In this document: positions 4,785 to 63,371 of the stretch, piece by piece
Position numbering within the stretch: the stretch's first letter is position 1
How the letters are laid out: each line of letters begins with the position of its first letter
NCBI GenBank assembly: GCA_030680175.1
Contig: JAUXWO010000064.1
Coordinates: 1-64,000, forward strand
Source: Vicinamibacterales bacterium
GTDB lineage: Bacteria; Acidobacteriota; Vicinamibacteria; Vicinamibacterales; UBA2999
Length of the DNA stretch: 64,000 nt
Direction: 5' to 3'
Position numbers and translations under genes: made by a program
Notes under the pieces: model-generated
The model's input: the letters and a program-made list of their open reading frames with translations, nothing else
Databases searched by the model: none
Told to the model about the DNA's origin: nothing

Positions 4785-5617
4785 ACGTCGTCACCCGGGG
4801 CATGCCGAGCCTGTCGGGCCTCACGAACCGGAGCGGCACCACGCCGGTCGCGCCGGACACGCCGGTCAAGATCGACGTGGAGGGCCTGCAGTTCTACTAC
4901 GGGGCCAAGCAGGCGCTCGAGGACATCTCGATCCGCATTCACGCCAACCTCGTCACGGCCTTCATCGGCCCGTCGGGCTGCGGCAAGAGCACGTTCCTCC
5001 GCACGCTGAACCGGATGAACGACATCATCCCGGACACGCGCGCCGAGGGCCGGGTCCGCATCGACGGCCAGGACATCTACGGCCCCGGCGTGGACGTGGT
5101 CCAGTTGCGGCGCCGGGTCGGCATGGTCTTCCAGAAGTCGAACCCGTTCCCGAAGTCCATCTTCGAGAACGTGGCCTACGGGCTGCGGGTGAACGGGCTG
5201 GCGCGCAGCAAGGCCGAGATGGCCGCGCGGGTCGAGGAGAGCCTGAAGGCGGCGGCGATCTGGGAGGAAGTGAAGGACCGGCTGCACGAGTCAGCGCTGG
5301 CGCTCTCGGGCGGCCAGCAGCAGCGGCTCTGCATCGCGCGGGCCCTGGCCATCCGCCCCGAGATCCTGCTGATGGACGAACCCGCCTCCGCCCTGGACCC
5401 GATCGCCACCCAGCGGATCGAGGAGCTGATCTACGATCTGAAGAAGAACTACACGATCGTCATCGTCACGCATAACATGCAGCAGGCGGCGCGCGTCTCC
5501 GATCACACGGCCTTCTTCTGGCTGGGCCGCCTCGTGGAGTACGATCGGACCGACAAGATCTTCACGGCGCCGGCGGAGAAGCTGACGGAAGACTACGTCA
5601 CCGGCCGGTGCGGGTAA
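4781..5617 (+). CDS. pstB: Phosphate ABC transporter ATP-binding protein PstB
   Basis: 278 residues, the cytoplasmic ATPase that powers phosphate uptake. Walker A is GPSGCGKST (about residues 63-71), the Q-loop is [17 protein letters not shown], the signature is LSGGQQQR, Walker B is [12 protein letters not shown] and the switch histidine is VIVTHNMQQ. The N-terminus has about 30 extra residues before the ABC fold, longer than in E. coli. The start at 4781 overlaps the pstA stop by four bases. PstB family members also take part in PhoR/PhoU phosphate signalling. Confidence 0.96.
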
Positions 5618-12135: not shown

Positions 12136-12210
12136 GGATTCGCGGCGCGTGGACTCCCAGGGTCCTGTCCGCCAAATGCGGAAGAGGCGCCTCCCGGTAG
12201 TGTACCCTTG

Positions 12211-12330
12211 TCTCCACCCCGGTCAGAAGATTGATGCCGTCCCTTCCGCCAACGATGGACACATCCCAGGTCTCCACCAAGGTCAGAAGATAGATGCCGT
12301 CCCTTCCGCCAGCGATGGACACATCGGAAC
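12211..12330. repeat. 60-bp tandem duplication upstream of the rhomboid gene
   Basis: Copies lie at 12211-12270 and 12271-12330. The first 55 bases differ at four positions and the last five diverge. The unit includes GGTCAGAAGA and GATGCCGTCCCTTCCGCC. The gap between the zinc-ribbon gene and the rhomboid gene holds nothing else but an 8-bp array. Open frames across the repeat on the minus strand are repetitive and not judged to be genes. Confidence 0.85.
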
Positions 12331-12334
12331 ATCC

Positions 12335-28873: not shown

Positions 28874-28883
28874 TCGACCTTCG

Positions 28884-29016
28884 CTATCAGCTATCAGCTA
28901 TCGGCGATCGGCTTTCGGCGATCGGCTTTCGGCGATCGGCGCTCGGCTTTCGGCTTTCGGCTTTCGGCGAACGGCTTTCGGCTTTCGGCTTTCGGCGATC
29001 GGCGATCGGCTCTCAG
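28884..29016. repeat. 7-bp tandem array, 19 degenerate copies (CTTTCGG family)
   Basis: Nineteen contiguous 7-bp units vary among CTATCAG, CTATCGG, CGATCGG, CTTTCGG, CGCTCGG and CGAACGG. The central TC/GG positions are kept and the second and third bases change. The same unit, in rotation GGCTTTC or its complement GAAAGCC, recurs at 41846, 51918 and 58912. Confidence 0.9.
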
Positions 29017-29053
29017 ACTCGGCGAGCCGAAGATCGGTCGCTCGCTGGATCAG

Positions 29054-29117
29054 ATCACCAGATCACCAGATCACCAGATCACCAGATCACCAGATCACCA
29101 GATCAGAAGATCAGAAG
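29054..29117. repeat. 8-bp tandem array, 6x ATCACCAG then 2x ATCAGAAG
   Basis: Six perfect ATCACCAG units are followed by two ATCAGAAG units. The unit is shared with the array at 12335-12366, some 17 kb away. Confidence 0.9.
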
Positions 29118-29177
29118 ATAGCTAACGAGATCTTCACATCTCACTTCAGATCACCACATCACCACATCACGAGATCG

Positions 29178-31281: not shown

Positions 31282-31376
31282 CGGACCTACCGGACCTGCC
31301 CGGACCTACCGGACCTGTCCGGACCGACCGGACCTGCCCGGCCCCACCGGACCTGTCCGGACCCACCGGACCTGTG
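31282..31376. repeat. 19-bp tandem array, five copies of alternating 9+10 units
   Basis: CGGACCTAC and CGGACCTGCC-like units alternate five times and end exactly at the base before the stop codon of the minus-strand zinc-ribbon gene (31377). It fills the gap between the two convergent genes. Confidence 0.85.
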
Positions 31377-40656: not shown

Positions 40657-41778
40657 GTGCCCACCCTCGCCTTCTATATCTCCGGACACGGCTTCGGCCA
40701 TGCCTCCCGCGACATCGAGGTCCTGAACGCGCTCGCCGCGCGGCGTCCCGACGTGCGTGTCGTTGTCCGCACGACCGTGGCCCCCTGGCTCTTCGATCTG
40801 ACGATGCGAGGCGCGTTCGAGTATGCGCGGGTGGAGTGCGACACCGGCATCGTGCAGATCGACGGGCTGCGGCTCGACGTGGCGGACACGCTCCGCCGCG
40901 CGCGCGCCTTCATGGCGGAGCTGCCCGCGCGCGCCGCGGCCGAGGCCGACGCGCTCACCGCGATCGGCGCGTCCCTCGTCGTCTATGACATCCCGGCGCT
41001 CGGCAGCGCCGCCGCCGCGCGCGCCGGCCTGCCGGCGGTCGCCCTCGGAAACTTCTCGTGGGACTGGGCGTACGCGGCGTACGACGGCGCGGCCGACGTG
41101 GCGGAGGCGGTGGCCGACGCGTACCGCCCGACGGCGCTCGCGTTGCGGCTGCCGATGCAGGGCGGTTTCGAGGCCTTCAGCCGCGTGGAGGATGTGCCCT
41201 TCATCGCGCGCCGGTCGGCACGCGCGGCCGTCGAGACGCGCGCGGCACTCGGCCTCTCCCGGGACGAGCGCGTCGTGCTCACCTCGTTCGGCGGCCACGG
41301 CGTCGTCGACATGAACCTCGACGCGCTGGCCGCGCTCGACGGCTACGCCGTGCTCGTGAGCGGCAGCATCCCGTTCGGCGTGGCAGGCGAGACACTGCTC
41401 GCGGGCGGACGCCGCGGGCGGATTGTCCCCTTCGACGAAACCTCGCTCTACGCGCAAGGCATCCGCTATGAGGATCTCGTCGCGGCCGCCGACGTCGTCG
41501 TGACCAAGCCGGGCTTCGGCATCATCGCCGAGTGCGTGGCCAACGACACCGCGATGGTGTACACGTCACGCGGCCACTTCGCGGAGTACGACGTGATGGT
41601 GCGCGAGATGCCCCGCGTGCTGCGCTGCCACTACCTCGACCAGGCGGATTTCTTCGCCGGCCGCTGGCGCGAGGCGCTCGACGCGGTCCTCGACCAGCCG
41701 CCGCCGCCGGACCACCCAGCCGTCAACGGCGCGGAGATCGTGGCGGAACGACTGGTCGAGTGGATGGAGAAGATATAG
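40657..41778 (+). CDS. GT-B fold glycosyltransferase-like protein (MurG / arabinokinase N-domain-like)
   Basis: 373 residues from a GTG. The N-terminus [23 protein letters not shown] is the glycine-rich loop of GT-B transferases, close to the N-domain of plant L-arabinokinase. The C-lobe has [15 protein letters not shown] and [19 protein letters not shown], with the nucleotide-sugar binding Glu region. Donor and acceptor are unknown. It is separated from lon by 38 bp of repeats. Tandem 9-bp units begin right after the stop. Confidence 0.7.
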
Positions 41779-41784
41779 GTGCTC

Positions 41785-41838
41785 GAGGTGCCCAAGGTGC
41801 CCAAGGTGCCCAAGGTGCCCAAGGTGCCCAAGGTGCCC
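41785..41838. repeat. 9-bp tandem array AAGGTGCCC, six copies
   Basis: One GAGGTGCCC unit and five perfect AAGGTGCCC units, immediately followed by a 7-bp array. It starts seven bases after the glycosyltransferase stop. Confidence 0.9.
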
Positions 41839-41845
41839 GGGTGCT

Positions 41846-41929
41846 GAGAGCCGAAAGCCGAGAGCTGACAGCCGGAAGCTGACAGCCGGGAGCCGACAGC
41901 TGAAAGCTGATCGCTGATCGCCGAGAACC
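41846..41929. repeat. 7-bp tandem array, 12 degenerate copies (GAAAGCC family)
   Basis: Twelve contiguous 7-bp units: GAGAGCC, GAAAGCC, GAGAGCT, GACAGCC, GGAAGCT, GAAAGCT, GATCGCT and similar. It is the complement of the family at 28884, 51918 and 58912, and ends six bases before the thioesterase ATG. Confidence 0.9.
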
Positions 41930-41935
41930 AACGTG

Positions 41936-51917: not shown

Positions 51918-51994
51918 AGCGATCGGCGACCGGCTGTCGGCTGTCAGCTGTCAGCGATCAGCTCTCGGCGGTCAGCTCTCGGCTTTCAGCTCTC
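51918..51994. repeat. 7-bp tandem array, 11 degenerate copies (GGCTTTC family)
   Basis: Units AGCGATC, GGCGACC, GGCTGTC, AGCTGTC, AGCTCTC, GGCGGTC and GGCTTTC in perfect 7-bp register. Same family as 28884, 41846 and 58912. It lies in the divergent-free gap between the DUF1028 start and the VWFA-protein stop. Confidence 0.9.
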
Positions 51995-52011
51995 GGCTCA
52001 GCACCGCGGCA

Positions 52012-52060
52012 CCCCGGCACCTCGGCACCTCCCTACGGCACCTCGGCACCTCCCTACGGC
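52012..52060. repeat. CGGCACCTC-type repeat with a 21-bp duplication at the end of the VWFA gene
   Basis: CGGCACC units and a 21-bp duplicated segment ending in CCCTAC (52031-52036 and 52052-52057) run into the stop codon of the VWFA-related gene (52054-52056). Confidence 0.6.
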
Positions 52061-54186
52061 ACGAGCCTGAAGCCGTAGGCGACGCGCTCGGTCGTGCCTT
52101 GACGCTCGGCGCTGACTTCGAGGACGTACTCGCCCTGCGCGAGGGGGGCGAGGGTGACGTCGGCGACGAGGAACGGCAGGCCGCGGTCCGCGTCCATGCG
52201 CTCGCCGATCGTCACGGGCAGGGGCATCGGCTGCCCGTCGCGGGTCAGGAGTTGCGCGCTGATCGTGGCGTCCCGCAAGCTGACGGGCACCTCGACGCGC
52301 AGGCGCTCCGTGCGCCGGAACCGTGGATCGGCGGTCGCCTGATACTGCAGCCCCGTTGACGGGCCGCGGCGTGAGGCCATCGGCGTGGTGCCGATCAACG
52401 CGCCCGGCGCGGGTACGTCGGTGCCGACGGACAGTTGCAGCGGAAGCCGCGCCCCCGTCGCGGTCACCTGCGCGCGCACGATGTAGCGGCCGGGCTCGAG
52501 ACCGGGGCCCTCCGGGAGCACCAGCGACAGCGTGCGCTGCCCCGGCGCGAGCGATCGCGTGACCGTCACCGGCTCCGCGATGAGATTGGGCGGCGGCTGG
52601 AACGTGATCTCCACCTCGCCCCCCGCGCGCCACGCCTCGTCGCGCACCGTGGCGGCGTCCAGTTCGATCACCACCCAGATGGCGCCCGCGCCGCGATCGT
52701 CGAGGTAGGCCGCCGGGAGTGCGCCGCCCACGTCACCGTCCGGCGGCGGCCAGAACCCGGACGCCTCGATCCGTAACGGCAACGTGCCGCGTGCCGACCC
52801 GAGGCGTCCAAGCGCCGCGGCCACCGCCGGCGGGGGCCCGGCCGGCGCCGCCGCCACCGCCGTCACGGCCGCCAGTTCGGACTCGCGCGGCGCGAGGTAC
52901 CCGGGGCGCGCCCGTACCTCCAGCCCCGGGCGCTTGACGCGCACGGTAAGGCGGCGATACCGGCCATCAAGGCGCGTGTTCGTGGAGTAGTACCCCAGCA
53001 GGTAGTACGACCCGAGGTCGCCCATGAAGCGGGAGACGGCGCCTGTCACATCGTTGGTGTTCAGCACGGCGACGCCGTCGGTCTCCTCGGCCAGCGTCCG
53101 GAGCGCCGACTGCCGGTTGAAGAGCCGGCGGCCGTCCTCGACCGGTGTGGCCGGCATGCGCGGGCCGATGGGTTCGTCGAAGGCGACGAGCCCTCGGGGA
53201 TCGATGGTGTAGAAGCTCACGTTCGATCGGTTCGCACGCTGCACGAGCAGCTGAAAGGTCAGCTGGTTGTCGAGGTTCGCGAGCAGTTGCCGGTCGCGCT
53301 CGCACTCGGTCATCCCGGCGTCGGTCAACTGCCGCGGGTCGCTGCCGAGCGTGAGCCGGCCCGTGGGGCCGACGTGGAGCGGGTCGACCACCTGCTCGGT
53401 CCCGAGCGCGGCCCCGAGCGCCTCGTTCCTCTGGAAGAGCCGCCAGCCCTCCGACAGCAGCAGCACGAACTTGCGCTCCTCGCGGACGCCCTCGAGGTGC
53501 ACCACCATCTCCTCGAGCGCGTCGAGCGTCTTCTTCTCGCGCCGGCGATCGACCATCTCGTTGACGATCGCCTCGTTGGCGCCGTAGCACCGGAGGTAGG
53601 CCTCCTCACGGGGATCCACCATGTCCACGCGATCGCGCTGGCCCCAGTACCAGTTGGTCGCCATCATCGCCTGCAGCGTGGACGTGCGACGCGCGAACGT
53701 GATGTTGTGCGCCGACATCTCGGGCGTCATCACCCCCACCATGTCGTCCTGGCCGATCAGCCGCTCGAGCAGGCGGCCGACCGGCTCCTGCGCGCGGTAC
53801 GACCCGCTCAACTGCACGTGCCACACGTCCATGAACAGCACGAAGAGGCGCGCGCGCGGATCGGCGGCCATCGCCTCGGCCTCGCGGACGCTGTTCGGCT
53901 CGAGGCGATCCGACTCAGGTCCGATGGGCCGCGGCTCGATGAGCTCGAACTGCTCGATGGACTGCGGGGCGTTGTCCTCGAGCACCTCGAAGTCGTCGGC
54001 GGTCAGGTCGGTGACCGCCTGGCCGTTCTGCGAGATGTAGGCGTCGACGCGCACCAGGTTGGCGCCGCCACGGAAGGGCGGCAGGGGGGCGCGTTCGGGG
54101 ACGGCGGGCTGCTGGGCGGCCAGGCCCGCGACGAGCACGACGAGGCCGGCGGAGAGCACCGAACGCAGTGACGAGGGTCCAGGCAT
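52054..54186 (-). CDS. Secreted VWFA-related protein (acidobacterial type)
   Basis: 710 residues. A signal peptide is followed by NLVRVDAYISQNGQAVTDLTADDF, the hallmark of the VWFA-related family (TIGR03436-like) that is expanded in Acidobacteriota. The expected MIDAS reads LFVLFMDVWHVQLSGS, so the DxSxS triad is degenerate. The C-terminal part is beta-rich with Ig-like segments. It is probably extracellular or periplasmic, with unknown function. A 35-bp gap separates it from the DUF4126 gene upstream. Confidence 0.85.
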   Translation of the reverse strand: MPGPSSLRSVLSAGLVVLVAGLAAQQPAVPERAPLPPFRGGANLVRVDAYISQNGQAVTDLTADDFEVLEDNAPQSIEQFELIEPRPIGPESDRLEPNSVREAEAMAADPRARLFVLFMDVWHVQLSGSYRAQEPVGRLLERLIGQDDMVGVMTPEMSAHNITFARRTSTLQAMMATNWYWGQRDRVDMVDPREEAYLRCYGANEAIVNEMVDRRREKKTLDALEEMVVHLEGVREERKFVLLLSEGWRLFQRNEALGAALGTEQVVDPLHVGPTGRLTLGSDPRQLTDAGMTECERDRQLLANLDNQLTFQLLVQRANRSNVSFYTIDPRGLVAFDEPIGPRMPATPVEDGRRLFNRQSALRTLAEETDGVAVLNTNDVTGAVSRFMGDLGSYYLLGYYSTNTRLDGRYRRLTVRVKRPGLEVRARPGYLAPRESELAAVTAVAAAPAGPPPAVAAALGRLGSARGTLPLRIEASGFWPPPDGDVGGALPAAYLDDRGAGAIWVVIELDAATVRDEAWRAGGEVEITFQPPPNLIAEPVTVTRSLAPGQRTLSLVLPEGPGLEPGRYIVRAQVTATGARLPLQLSVGTDVPAPGALIGTTPMASRRGPSTGLQYQATADPRFRRTERLRVEVPVSLRDATISAQLLTRDGQPMPLPVTIGERMDADRGLPFLVADVTLAPLAQGEYVLEVSAERQGTTERVAYGFRLVP

Positions 54187-58896: not shown

Positions 58897-58911
58897 ACGG
58901 GGACGGCGTTA

Positions 58912-58946
58912 AGCTGTCGGCTTTCAGCTCTCGGCTTTCGGCTTTC
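58912..58946. repeat. 7-bp tandem array, five copies (GGCTTTC/AGCTNTC)
   Basis: AGCTGTC, GGCTTTC, AGCTCTC, GGCTTTC, GGCTTTC lie between the MutS-like stop and the HerA-like start, followed by CGGCACGCC. Confidence 0.85.
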
Positions 58947-58965
58947 GGCACGCCGGCACGCCTTT

Positions 58966-61362
58966 ATGACTTTCGAACAACTCGGGCTCTTCTATCTGGG
59001 GCGGCGGTACGACGCGGTGGCGCGGCAGCGGCTGCCGGAACCGGTGTTGTACGACGCCGCGGATCTGGTGACGCACGCCGTGTGCATCGGCATGACCGGC
59101 AGCGGCAAGACGGGGCTGGGGATCTCGCTCATCGAGGAGGCCGCGATCGACGGCATCCCGGTGCTGGCGATCGATCCCAAGGGCGACCTCGGCAACCTGA
59201 TGCTCACGTTCCCGGGGCTCACGGCCGCGGAGTTCGCGCCGTGGGTGAACCCTGACGAGGCGCGCGGCGCGGGCCTCTCGACCGAGGCGCTCGCCGAGCG
59301 TGAGGCCGCGCGCTGGTCGGCGGGGCTCGCCGACTGGGGGCAGGACGGCGCCCGTATCCGGAAGCTGAAGGACGCGGCCGACGTGGCCATCTACACGCCC
59401 GGCAGCCGGGCGGGCCTCCCGCTCTCGATCCTCGATTCGTTCCGCGCGCCGCCCACCGCCGTGCGCGACGAGCCGGAGCTGCTGGCCGAGCGCGTGCAGA
59501 CCTCCGTGACGAGCCTGCTGACGCTGGCCGGCGTGGACGCCGATCCGGCGCGCAGCCGCGAGCACATCCTCGTGTCGACCGTGCTCACCGAGGCGTGGCG
59601 CGCGGGACGCGATCTCGATCTGGCCGGGCTCATCGCGGCCGTGCAGTCGCCGCCGGTCACGACCGTGGGCGTCCTCGACCTCGAGAGCTTCTATCCGGCG
59701 AAAGAGCGGTTCGACCTGGCCATGCGCCTGAACCACCTGCTGGCCGCGCCGGGGTTTGCCGCGTGGATGGAGGGCGCGCCGCTCGACATCGACCGCCTGC
59801 TCTACACGCCCGAGGGACGGCCGCGCGTGGCCGTCATCTCGATCGCACATCTCGGCGACGCCGAGCGGATGTTCTTCGTCAGCCTGCTGCTCGGCCAGGT
59901 GATCGCGTGGATGCGCGCACAGCGCGGCACGTCCACGCTGCGGGCGCTCGTCTACATGGACGAGCTCTTCGGGTTTCTGCCGCCCACGGCGAACCCGCCG
60001 TCGAAGACGCCGCTGCTGACGCTGCTCAAGCAGGCGCGCGCCTACGGCCTGGGCCTGGTGCTGTCGACGCAGAATCCGGTGGACCTCGACTACAAGGCGC
60101 TCTCGAACGCGGGCACGTGGTTCCTCGGCCGCCTGCAGACCGAGCGCGACAAGGCGCGGGTGCTGGACGGGCTCGAGGGCGTGGCGTCTGGCGCCGGCGC
60201 CGGCCTCGATCGCGCGAGCCTCGATCGGCTTCTATCCGGGCTCGACAAGCGCGTGTTCCTGCTCCACAACGTCCATGCGAAGGCGCCCGAGGTCTTCCAG
60301 ACCCGCTGGGCCCTGTCGTACCTGCGCGGCCCGCTCGGCCGCGACGAGATCAGGCAGTTGATGGGCGGGGCCACCACCACCGTCGCATCGGAGGCCTCCT
60401 CCGCACCAGCCGCCCCCGTGAGCCACCCCGAGGGTCCTGACGCCGCTGAGGCGCCTGCGAGGGCCCCGCTCCTTCCGCCGTCGATTCCTCAGTTCTTCGC
60501 GCCGGGCCCGGGCGGCCCACGCGTGGCGCGGCTGCTCGGGATCGCGCAGGTGCGGTTCACGGATCGGAAGCTGGGCGTCGACGAGGTGACCGACCTCGTC
60601 GTGACGACCGGCATCGGCGAGGGGGCCATCGCGGTGGACTGGTCGGAGGCCAGGCCCGCCCCGTTTGGCGCCGCGGATCTGTCGAGCACTCCCCCCCGGG
60701 ACACCACGTTTGCGTCGGTGCCGGCATCCGCGACCCGCGTGGCCAGCTACAAGGGATGGGCGAAGGGCTTCGCGGTGTGGTTGGGCGCCGCGCAGGGCAT
60801 CGAGGTCCTCACGGCGCCGCGCCTGAAGCTGGCGTCTGCGCCGGGTGAGTCCGAGCGGGACTTCCGCATTCGCCTGCAGACCTCGCTGCGCGAGCGGCGC
60901 GACGAGGCGAAGCAGCGCATCGCGCAGAAGTACGCCGCGAAGCTGCAGCGGCTCGACGACCGCATCCGTACGGCTGATGCCGCGGTCGAGCGCGAGCAGG
61001 GGCAGGCGGCCGACCAGAAGCTGCAGACGGCCGTTTCCTTCGGCGCGGCCGTGCTCGGCGCCGTCTTCGGGCGCAAGGCCGTCAGCGCCTCGTCGATCGG
61101 CAAGGCGACGACCGCGGCGCGCGGCCTGGGACGGGTCGGCCGCGAAGCACGCGATGTGGCGCGCGCCACGGGGAGGCGGGACGACCTCGTCGAGGAGCGC
61201 CGATCGCTCGAGGCCGAGATGGAGGAGGAACTGCACGCGGCGCACGACGAGTTCGACGCATTGACCGAGCCACTCGAGGCCGTCCGCATCCCGCCGGCGC
61301 GCGGCGGCATCTCGGTGCAGCAGGTCGGGCTTGTGTGGGTCTCCGCGGGCGGTGAACGGTGA
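58966..61362 (+). CDS. HerA/FtsK-like ATPase (DUF853-type)
   Basis: 798 residues. Walker A is GMTGSGKTGLG (about residues 42-52) and Walker B is ALVYMDELFGFLPP (about 327-340). IDPKGDLGNLMLTFPG and LVLSTQNPVDLDYKALSNAGTWF are conserved in HerA-like translocases. A coiled-coil, Arg/Glu-rich region spans about residues 640-780. It is a DNA or polymer translocase-like ATPase in the cytoplasm, with unknown substrate. No NurA nuclease is adjacent, so a classical HerA-NurA pair is not present. It follows the MutS-like ATPase across a repeat. Confidence 0.82.
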   Translation: MTFEQLGLFYLGRRYDAVARQRLPEPVLYDAADLVTHAVCIGMTGSGKTGLGISLIEEAAIDGIPVLAIDPKGDLGNLMLTFPGLTAAEFAPWVNPDEARGAGLSTEALAEREAARWSAGLADWGQDGARIRKLKDAADVAIYTPGSRAGLPLSILDSFRAPPTAVRDEPELLAERVQTSVTSLLTLAGVDADPARSREHILVSTVLTEAWRAGRDLDLAGLIAAVQSPPVTTVGVLDLESFYPAKERFDLAMRLNHLLAAPGFAAWMEGAPLDIDRLLYTPEGRPRVAVISIAHLGDAERMFFVSLLLGQVIAWMRAQRGTSTLRALVYMDELFGFLPPTANPPSKTPLLTLLKQARAYGLGLVLSTQNPVDLDYKALSNAGTWFLGRLQTERDKARVLDGLEGVASGAGAGLDRASLDRLLSGLDKRVFLLHNVHAKAPEVFQTRWALSYLRGPLGRDEIRQLMGGATTTVASEASSAPAAPVSHPEGPDAAEAPARAPLLPPSIPQFFAPGPGGPRVARLLGIAQVRFTDRKLGVDEVTDLVVTTGIGEGAIAVDWSEARPAPFGAADLSSTPPRDTTFASVPASATRVASYKGWAKGFAVWLGAAQGIEVLTAPRLKLASAPGESERDFRIRLQTSLRERRDEAKQRIAQKYAAKLQRLDDRIRTADAAVEREQGQAADQKLQTAVSFGAAVLGAVFGRKAVSASSIGKATTAARGLGRVGREARDVARATGRRDDLVEERRSLEAEMEEELHAAHDEFDALTEPLEAVRIPPARGGISVQQVGLVWVSAGGER

Positions 61363-61437
61363 ACGGGGATCGGGGACCGGGGATCGGGGAACCGCGAACT
61401 GCGAATCACAAATGGCGAACGGCGAATTGCGAATTGC
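61361..61437. repeat. 7-bp tandem array, 11 degenerate copies (GAACGGC/GATCGGG)
   Basis: Units GAACGGG, GATCGGG, GACCGGG, GAACCGC, GAACTGC, GAATTGC and others from the HerA stop codon onward, with looser GCGAATAGC-like units to 61466. Confidence 0.85.
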
Positions 61438-61466
61438 GCGAATCGCGAACAGCTCGCGAATAGCGA

Positions 61467-62474
61467 ATGGCGAACAGCGCACTGCACGTCGACGTTCTGA
61501 GGGGCGGCCTCGTCGAGTCCCGCCACCGCGTCCACGCCGTTGTCGCGGACGCGGCCGGACGGCTGGTGTGGGCGGCGGGCGATGCGGGCCTTGTCACCTT
61601 CGTCCGCTCCGCCATCAAGATGTTCCAGGCACTGCCGCTCGTCGAGGACGGCGGCGTGGAGCGGTACGGCCTGACGGCCGCGGAGATTGCGATCACCACG
61701 GCCTCCCATGGCGGCGAGCCGTTCCACATCGACACCGTGCGCGCGCTGCTCGGCAAGACCGGGTGCACCGAGGAGATGCTGGCGTGCGGCCCGCATCCGC
61801 CGATGCACCAGGCGTCGGCCGGCGCGCTCGGCACCGGCGGCATCACCCCCGGCCGCATCCACAACAACTGCTCCGGCAAGCACGCCGGCATGCTCGCGCT
61901 CGCGGGGCTGCATGGCTGGCCGCGCGCGCACTACCAGCTGCTCGCGCATCCCGTGCAGTCGCGCGTGCTCGCCACCCTCGCGGAGTGGACCGGCGTCCCG
62001 CACGAGGCCATCGGCTGCGCGGTCGACGGCTGCGGCCTGCCGACCTTCGCCCTGCCCCTCGACGCCATGGCGCGCGGCTGTGCGCGTCTGTCGGCCGCGG
62101 CGGCGCGCGGTGACGAGGCGCCCGCGCGCGTGCTCGGCGCCATGACCGCGCACCCGGAGTACGTCGCCGGGACCGATCGCCTCTGCACCGACCTGATGCG
62201 GGCCGCCGGGGGGCGTCTCTGGGCCAAGGTGGGCGCCGAGGGGTACTACTGCGCGGGCGTGCCGGACCGCGGGCTCGGCCTCGCCCTCAAGGTCGAAGAC
62301 GGCGCGTGGCGGGCTGTCGAGCCCGCGCTGCTCGCGGTGCTCGGCGAGGCCGGCGCCCTCGACGACGAGGTGCTGGCGGCGCTCGAGCAGTACGCGACGC
62401 CCACGATCACCAATACCCGCGGGGAGCGGGTCGGGGCGATCCGGGTGCACCGCTCAGGAGAGACCCGCCCCTGA
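61467..62474 (+). CDS. L-asparaginase II (Rhizobium etli type)
   Basis: 335 residues. RSAIKMFQALPLVEDG (about residues 47-62) and HNNCSGKHAGMLAL (about residues 131-144) are the signature blocks of the PF06089 asparaginase family, with the catalytic Ser and Lys. ASHGGEPFH and VDGCGLPTFALPL support this. It hydrolyses asparagine to aspartate and ammonia in the cytoplasm. There is no signal peptide. The start lies at the end of a repeat array, with no clear ribosome-binding site. Confidence 0.9.
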   Translation: MANSALHVDVLRGGLVESRHRVHAVVADAAGRLVWAAGDAGLVTFVRSAIKMFQALPLVEDGGVERYGLTAAEIAITTASHGGEPFHIDTVRALLGKTGCTEEMLACGPHPPMHQASAGALGTGGITPGRIHNNCSGKHAGMLALAGLHGWPRAHYQLLAHPVQSRVLATLAEWTGVPHEAIGCAVDGCGLPTFALPLDAMARGCARLSAAAARGDEAPARVLGAMTAHPEYVAGTDRLCTDLMRAAGGRLWAKVGAEGYYCAGVPDRGLGLALKVEDGAWRAVEPALLAVLGEAGALDDEVLAALEQYATPTITNTRGERVGAIRVHRSGETRP

Positions 62475-63284: not shown

Positions 63285-63371
63285 GCCGGCGTGGCGGAAT
63301 TGGCAGACGCGCGGGACTCAAAATCCTGTGCCCGCAAGGGCGTGTGGGTTCGACCCCCTCCGCCGGCACCA
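63285..63371 (+). tRNA. tRNA-Leu (anticodon CAA)
   Basis: 87 nt including the encoded CCA (63369-63371). Acceptor arms GCCGGCG and CGCCGGC pair fully. The anticodon loop CTCAAAA gives CAA at 63319-63321, reading UUG. The long variable arm (GCCC-GCAA-GGGC) is typical of class II tRNA-Leu. GGTTCGA is the T-loop signature. Other leucine tRNAs must be elsewhere. Confidence 0.96.

What the first reader, a model, noticed from the sequence alone, without database searches (positions are those of the whole stretch)
41785..41929. Abutting 9-bp and 7-bp arrays between a glycosyltransferase and a thioesterase
AAGGTGCCC x6 is followed directly by a 12-copy 7-bp array. At 51918-52060 a 7-bp array is again followed by GGCACC-type repeats, which are the complement of GGTGCC. 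The same two kinds of array are paired at two sites, and 58912 also ends in CGGCACGCC.
Basis: seen in the sequence. Interest (0 to 1): 0.6.

Follow-up and report, generated by a model that had tools for sequence, protein, structure and literature searches.

The report
Polar short-repeat arrays between genes
A soil-type acidobacterium fills many gaps between its genes with short 7-9 base repeats of a dozen different "words", and each word always runs in one fixed direction away from the neighbouring gene; only single-word examples of such a pattern were found in the literature.

Summary
The arrays are real: AAGGTGCCC (about 7 copies) abuts a degenerate heptamer array (AGCYGAN, about 12 copies) at 41778-41935, with similar neighbours at 51918-52062. 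The site at 58904-58965 is weak (two GGCACGCC copies). Shuffled sequence gives almost none.

The real regularity is wider. In 1.21 Mb of this 4.98 Mb Acidobacteriota genome about 240 non-coding arrays of at least 10 unit types fill intergenic gaps. Each type has a fixed polarity: one defined strand reads inward from the gene border, at stops and starts alike. Neighbouring arrays in a gap are convergent (53 convergent, 0 divergent), even when the two units are unrelated. A label-free test reproduces this in two genomes of other families in the same order, more weakly in a third. Vocabularies are largely private to each genome. The same polarity was published for GGGNATC (Xanthomonas, Nostoc) and fits TAACTGA (Beggiatoaceae).

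Best guess at mechanism: scars of strand-specific 3'-end extension at both sides of an intergenic break, then joining (confidence 0.3). No reverse transcriptase was found. mRNA-level selection is the main rival. Verdict: new variant of a known kind, unexplained polarity law.

The parts
41778..41840 (+). 9-bp array (A)AGGTGCCC, type B9, at the 3' border of the upstream glycosyltransferase-like gene (stop codon ends at 41778); inward strand = +
   Evidence: TRF period 9, 6.9 copies, 96% match; sequence
41843..41935 (-). 7-bp array, type A', inward-reading unit TCRGCTN on the minus strand (AGCYGAN on plus), ending just before the start codon of the next gene; convergent with the B9 array
51918..51998 (+). 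7-bp array type A' (TCRGCTN on plus) beside the start of the DUF1028 gene (minus strand)
51998..52062 (-). GGTGCC(GA) array, types B8 and 21-mer, inward on minus strand, at the 3' end of the gene 52054-54186 (minus)
58904..58949 (+). 7-bp array type A' after the stop of the MutS-like gene (ends 58896)
58948..58963 (-). two copies of GGCACGCC (GGCGTGCC on minus): weak, B-like partner before the HerA-like gene start at 58966
   Evidence: sequence
28883..29011 (+). 7-bp array type A', about 17 units
29051..29170 (-). 8-bp array GTGATCTG (type H), inward on minus strand, convergent with the heptamer array
61350..61392 (+). GGTGAAC then GGGGATC heptamers (types F, J) in the same polarity
61394..61479 (-). 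7-bp array type E' (TTCGCYR on minus; GCGAAYR on plus), convergent with the J array
40657..41778 (+). flanking gene, glycosyltransferase-like (sub-threshold Pfam match)
   Evidence: PF13528 E=0.0014, below cut-off
   Evidence: ORF

Best explanation
Shown: intergenic arrays of 7-, 8- and 9-bp units in which each unit type has a fixed polarity. One defined strand (usually the G-richer one) reads 5' to 3' away from the adjacent gene, so that two arrays in one gap converge. The rule holds at stop and start borders and for pairs of unrelated units. Inferred mechanism: each gap is a repair scar. After a break between genes, a strand-specific process added short tandem repeats to the 3' end on each side (the same polarity as a telomere's G-strand), often a different word on each side, and the two ends were then joined by end joining. 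Slippage later changed copy numbers, and selection removed scars that damaged genes or put the G-rich sense strand just ahead of a start codon. The enzyme and the source of the words are unknown.
For: Pairs in one gap: 53 convergent, 0 divergent, 2 mixed tandem, the rest tandem interruptions of one array; the rule holds in stop/stop (14:0), start/start (5:0) and co-directional (34:0) gaps. Of these, 21 pairs join unrelated units. Label-free: in G000, G046 and G051, 70 inverted same-family pairs, and no family shows both signs. Independent genomes: sum of |orientation x border| 103/127 in G051, 51/77 in G046, 130/238 in G000, all above 5000 random draws. In 297 Acidobacteriota genomes the convergent TCAGCT..AGCTGA motif occurs at about 20 places in 11 genomes, and the divergent form at 2 places, identical in sequence, in 2 genomes of one genus. 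Both borders carry arrays in 53 gaps against 18.5 expected. The inward strand is the G-richer one in 27 of 32 unit families. Non-array intergenic sequence has no such skew. Ku is present in G000, G046 and G051.
Against: No enzyme found: G000 has no RVT_1 match. Ku is equally present in array-poor relatives. In short co-directional gaps with one array, polarity is of start type 30:7, whereas a symmetric break predicts 1:1 and needs added selection. Arrays with no detected partner are also polar (48:9 when asymmetric by more than 40 bp), though inspection shows that many have an undetected partner. No gradient of unit homogeneity along arrays, as tip growth might leave. Same-family pairs are commoner than random, 33 against 12.5. 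Arrays more than 100 bp from both borders show no polarity by G-skew. The rule is weak in G037 (p=0.007, some families with both signs). G-skew alone predicts polarity poorly.
Confidence: 0.3

Rival explanations
1. Selection on transcripts. Arrays grow by slippage in either orientation, but only those survive that put a G-poor, SD-poor strand in the 5' leader and the G-rich strand after the stop codon, where they may act in translation, termination or 3'-end stability.
For: Start-type polarity 30:7 in short co-directional gaps. TAACTGA sits in forward sense just upstream of starts in Beggiatoaceae and was proposed as a translational regulator site (PMC4679880). Some G-rich units (AGGATTG, AAGTGAG) look SD-like.
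Against: Polarity is as strict in stop/stop gaps (14:0), where no start codon is involved. Non-array border sequence shows no keto or G asymmetry. Type A and E units differ little in G content between strands but are polar.
Confidence: 0.3
2. Inverted-repeat mobile elements (REP or MITE-like) whose ends are the arrays; a palindromic insert is convergent in either orientation, and single arrays are decayed halves.
For: Type I (CGTACAAACACGAAGGACACGAAGGCCACGAAG ... inverted, gap usually 54-66 bp) has conserved arms and is such an element. Same-family pairs are enriched.
Against: 21 convergent pairs are of unrelated units. Spacers of type A pairs share no sequence with each other. Copy number and spacing vary freely.
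Confidence: 0.15
3. Plain neutral microsatellites: slippage of local seeds in dispensable DNA, no special polarity mechanism.
For: Arrays are intergenic, variable and differ between relatives.
Against: Does not predict family-specific polarity or convergence, nor the same word at dozens of loci.
Confidence: 0.1
4. Telomerase-like reverse transcriptase (DRT10 type) that makes 7-9 nt tandem repeats from an ncRNA template, with accidental integration at breaks.
For: DRT10 makes 9-nt tandem repeats by A-B-A' template realignment (PMC12632851). Unit length and polarity resemble telomere addition.
Against: No RVT_1 match in G000 (100% complete), nor in G045 or G058. More than 10 words would need as many templates.
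Confidence: 0.05

Closest known systems
GGGNATC G-quadruplex heptamer arrays of Xanthomonas and Nostoc (Rehm et al. 2015, PMC4692102)
   Same: 7-bp intergenic arrays, singles or inverted pairs; nearer to the 5' neighbouring ORF whatever the ORF direction, i.e. the same polarity; type J (GGGGATC) here is close in sequence.
   Different: That work treats one G4-forming word. Here many words, most not G4-forming, in one genome, with mixed convergent pairs and 8- and 9-bp units.
TAACTGA heptamer repeats of Beggiatoaceae, cyanobacteria and Bacteroidetes (MacGregor 2015, PMC4679880)
   Same: Forward before starts; reverse after a stop in some species: same polarity rule. Units AACTGAN occur in G046.
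   Different: One word; mostly 2-6 copies; proposed as translational regulatory sites; placement in Microcystis is less uniform.
Cyanobacterial short tandemly repeated repetitive (STRR) heptamers
   Same: Degenerate 7-bp intergenic arrays (from my own knowledge of the literature; the term occurs in PMC2670836 and PMC7593598).
   Different: Polarity and mixed pairing not tested here for STRRs.
REP / palindromic extragenic elements (PMC3733652)
   Same: Type I here behaves as a dispersed inverted repeat.
   Different: Other types have no conserved palindromic core.
DRT10 / telomerase tandem-repeat synthesis (PMC12632851)
   Same: Strand-specific short tandem repeats; same polarity logic.
   Different: No reverse transcriptase detected in G000.

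Membership tests
Intergenic heptamer (STRR-type) tandem arrays | 7-bp tandem units, several copies | tested here: met
   159 non-coding period-7 arrays in 1.21 Mb against 15 coding
Intergenic heptamer (STRR-type) tandem arrays | located in intergenic regions at many loci | tested here: met
   type A 86 non-coding, 3 coding
GGGNATC G4 repeats | G-tracts able to form a quadruplex | tested here: not met
   by sequence AGCYGAN, GCGAAYR and AAGGTGCCC lack G3 tracts; only type J and D units have them
GGGNATC G4 repeats | nearest to the 5' neighbouring ORF irrespective of its direction | tested here: met
   polarity tables agree with PMC4692102 section 13
REP/MITE elements | conserved inverted-repeat ends copied between loci | tested here: not met
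   spacers of type A pairs not similar, mixed pairs common; met only for type I
Known structured RNA (Rfam) | match to a known RNA family | tested here: not met
   only one tRNA in the window
DRT10 / telomerase-like system | reverse transcriptase gene in the genome | tested here: not met
   no RVT_1 match in G000
End-joining scar model | Ku present | tested here: met
   G000:C46, E=3.7e-42; not discriminating, 44 of 59 genomes have it
End-joining scar model | array absent and gap short in close relatives (empty site) | tested here: inconclusive
   two gaps in 20 kb of G037 vs G049: array present in one, absent in the other; flanks too diverged to align

The most novel reading that the evidence does not exclude
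Bacteria of several phyla share a strand-specific process that writes short tandem repeats of genome-private words onto 3' ends at intergenic breaks, a telomere-like end-healing activity not based on a known reverse transcriptase; the arrays are its fossil record.
Probability: 0.15. Interest if true: 0.9.

Novelty: new variant of a known kind. Interest (0 to 1): 0.55.

Why it matters
Heptamer arrays have puzzled people since cyanobacterial STRRs. A rule that holds for dozens of unrelated words in several genomes, strict enough to give zero divergent pairs, says that the process is strand-specific with respect to the gap, not random slippage. That turns an old curiosity into a testable question: is polarity made by mutation (end extension and joining) or by selection on transcripts? 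Either answer would be useful, one for DNA repair, the other for how bacteria mark gene borders.

Tried and rejected
Specific nonamer-heptamer partnership: not above random pairing. Reverse transcriptase source: none in G000. Local composition: non-array border sequence has keto 0.499/0.500 and almost no G skew. Pure G-skew rule: fails in G046 and G037. Growth-tip gradient of homogeneity: none, 41 vs 35, p=0.99. RNA structure of the finding's arrays: z -2.0 and -0.9 on the two strands, -0.2 and -1.1 at the other two sites, so no strong case. Rfam: no family. A second word, GTGGGTA, could not be tested across the phylum, as its inverted pairs occur only in G000 (one convergent, none divergent). 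Nostoc plasmids, as a curated test in another phylum, are not in the collections under the accessions tried.

Full report
What was checked. The window lies in G000:C112, a 4.98 Mb, 143-contig genome. The nearest named loci for a window protein are mostly Acidobacteria metagenome bins at about 70-77% identity. The two arrays at 41778-41840 (9 bp) and 41843-41935 (7 bp) are there as described, as is the pair at 51918-52062. The pair at 58904-58965 has a true heptamer array but only two copies of GGCACGCC. A fourth case, heptamer with an octamer, is at 28883-29170. Dinucleotide shuffles give almost no such arrays.

Extent. This caller is a simple one, and starts may be off by a few codons. Period-7 arrays are 159 non-coding against 15 coding, period-8 47 against 13; period-9 arrays are mixed with coding ones (71 against 142). 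The main non-coding unit types, named by the strand that reads inward from the gene border, are TCRGCTN (A'), TTCGCYR (E'), GTGGGTA (D), GGTGCC-types of 8 and 9 bp (B), GTGATCTG (H), GGTGRAC (F), GGGGATC (J), TTAGTTC (M), GCAGATT (L) and ACACGAAGG (I). Type I is a dispersed inverted repeat with conserved arms, not a simple array, and type H is part of a longer dispersed element.

The polarity rule. Labelling each type by its inward strand, adjacent arrays in one gap are convergent 53 times, divergent never, and mixed tandem twice; further tandem cases are one array interrupted. The labels of A and E were fixed after seeing the data, so label-free tests were made. Clustering units without labels and letting each family choose its own sign, the agreement of orientation with nearest border is 130/238 in G000 (random mean 42.6), 51/77 in G046 (15.9) and 103/127 in G051 (32.0), none reached in 5000 draws; G037 gives 39/93 (21.9, p=0.007). 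In G000, G046 and G051 there are 70 inverted pairs of one family in a gap, and no family has both signs; G037 has some of both. In 297 genomes of the phylum the pattern TCAGCT(N)TCAGCT..AGCTGA(N)AGCTGA is found at about 20 places in 11 genomes; the reversed arrangement is found at two places, identical in sequence, in two genomes of one genus.

What the pairing means. The finding's nonamer-heptamer pair is one instance. GGTGCC arrays pair with the A heptamer 5 times, 3.3 expected; same-family pairs are enriched, 33 against 12.5. Both borders of a gap carry arrays 53 times against 18.5 expected for gaps over 60 bp, though gaps differ in how much they tolerate, which inflates this. In short co-directional gaps with a single array the polarity is that of the start border, 30 to 7.

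Distribution. AGCYGAN triples occur 409 times in G000 and 0-8 times in each of 35 same-family genomes, but 156 times in G046, 76 in G051 and 24 in G045, of other families in the order. Samples of 20 relatives also hold non-coding period-7 arrays (26 against 3 coding in 320 kb), with other words. So the habit is widespread in the order and the words are largely private. Comparison of 20 kb of G037 with its congener G049 shows gaps with an array in one and none in the other.

Mechanism. The geometry is that of two 3' ends, each extended with repeats and then joined: the added strand reads away from the gene on both sides, and the words on the two sides may differ. The inward strand is G-richer in 27 of 32 families, as for telomeres. 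Surrounding non-array sequence has no such skew. Against it stand the lack of an enzyme (no RVT_1 in G000; Ku present but also in array-poor relatives), the 30:7 start bias, and the absence of a homogeneity gradient. Selection on transcripts explains the start bias but not the equally strict rule in stop/stop gaps (14:0). I therefore rate the scar model at 0.3 and selection at 0.3, with the remainder spread over mobile elements and unknowns. The rule itself is much more secure than any mechanism.

Comparison with the literature. Rehm et al. 2015 (PMC4692102) report for GGGNATC in Xanthomonas and Nostoc that repeats lie nearer to the 5' ORF irrespective of ORF direction, with 83% conserved in place between two Xanthomonas species. 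MacGregor 2015 (PMC4679880) reports TAACTGA forward before starts and, in some species, reverse after stops, and relatives with shorter gaps without repeats. Both fit the rule. I found no paper stating it across many words; the searches covered open-licence PMC papers only.

Limits. Own gene caller; draft genome; families set by simple clustering; 24% of the genome sampled, partly chosen by contigs with AGCYGAN or AAGGTGCCC hits, and the G046 and G051 samples were chosen around AGCYGAN hits. That affects densities, not orientation tests.

Noticed in passing
window 12210-12325: A 60-bp unit duplicated in tandem (92% match), followed at 12334 by an 8-bp CATCACCA array.
   Followed up: no
window 31282-31375: 9/19-bp array of GGTCCGG type units (GGTCCGGTGGGTCCGGACA) between genes.
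   Followed up: partly
L049 around 4992-5111 and other loci (G000 C11:24992-25111, C22, C62, C101, C104, C136): Dispersed inverted repeat CGTACAAACACGAAGGACACGAAGGCCACGAAG with a spacer usually of about 55 bp, REP/MITE-like, enriched between convergent genes.
   Followed up: partly
L045 12527-12620, L043 1402-1480, L053 6670-6759: About 100-bp dispersed element containing GTGATCTG octamers with a similar degenerate tail (GATGTGAGATGT..AGATCTATCTCCTGATCTGG).
   Followed up: no
L185 (G024), L186 (G025), L173 (G002): Same-family relatives carry their own heptamer words, some as inverted pairs (AAAGGCA/TTTTGCC, CTTGGGG/CCCAAGA, TCAGTTG/GACAACT).
   Followed up: partly
G095 (same phylum): 12 matches to the backwards control of the GTGGGT inverted pattern, suggesting yet another abundant repeat word.
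   Followed up: no
window 63285-63368; G000 C11 17485, C101 2515: The window has a tRNA gene (Rfam). Elsewhere in G000 some arrays abut tRNA 3' ends with the usual family polarity.
   Followed up: partly
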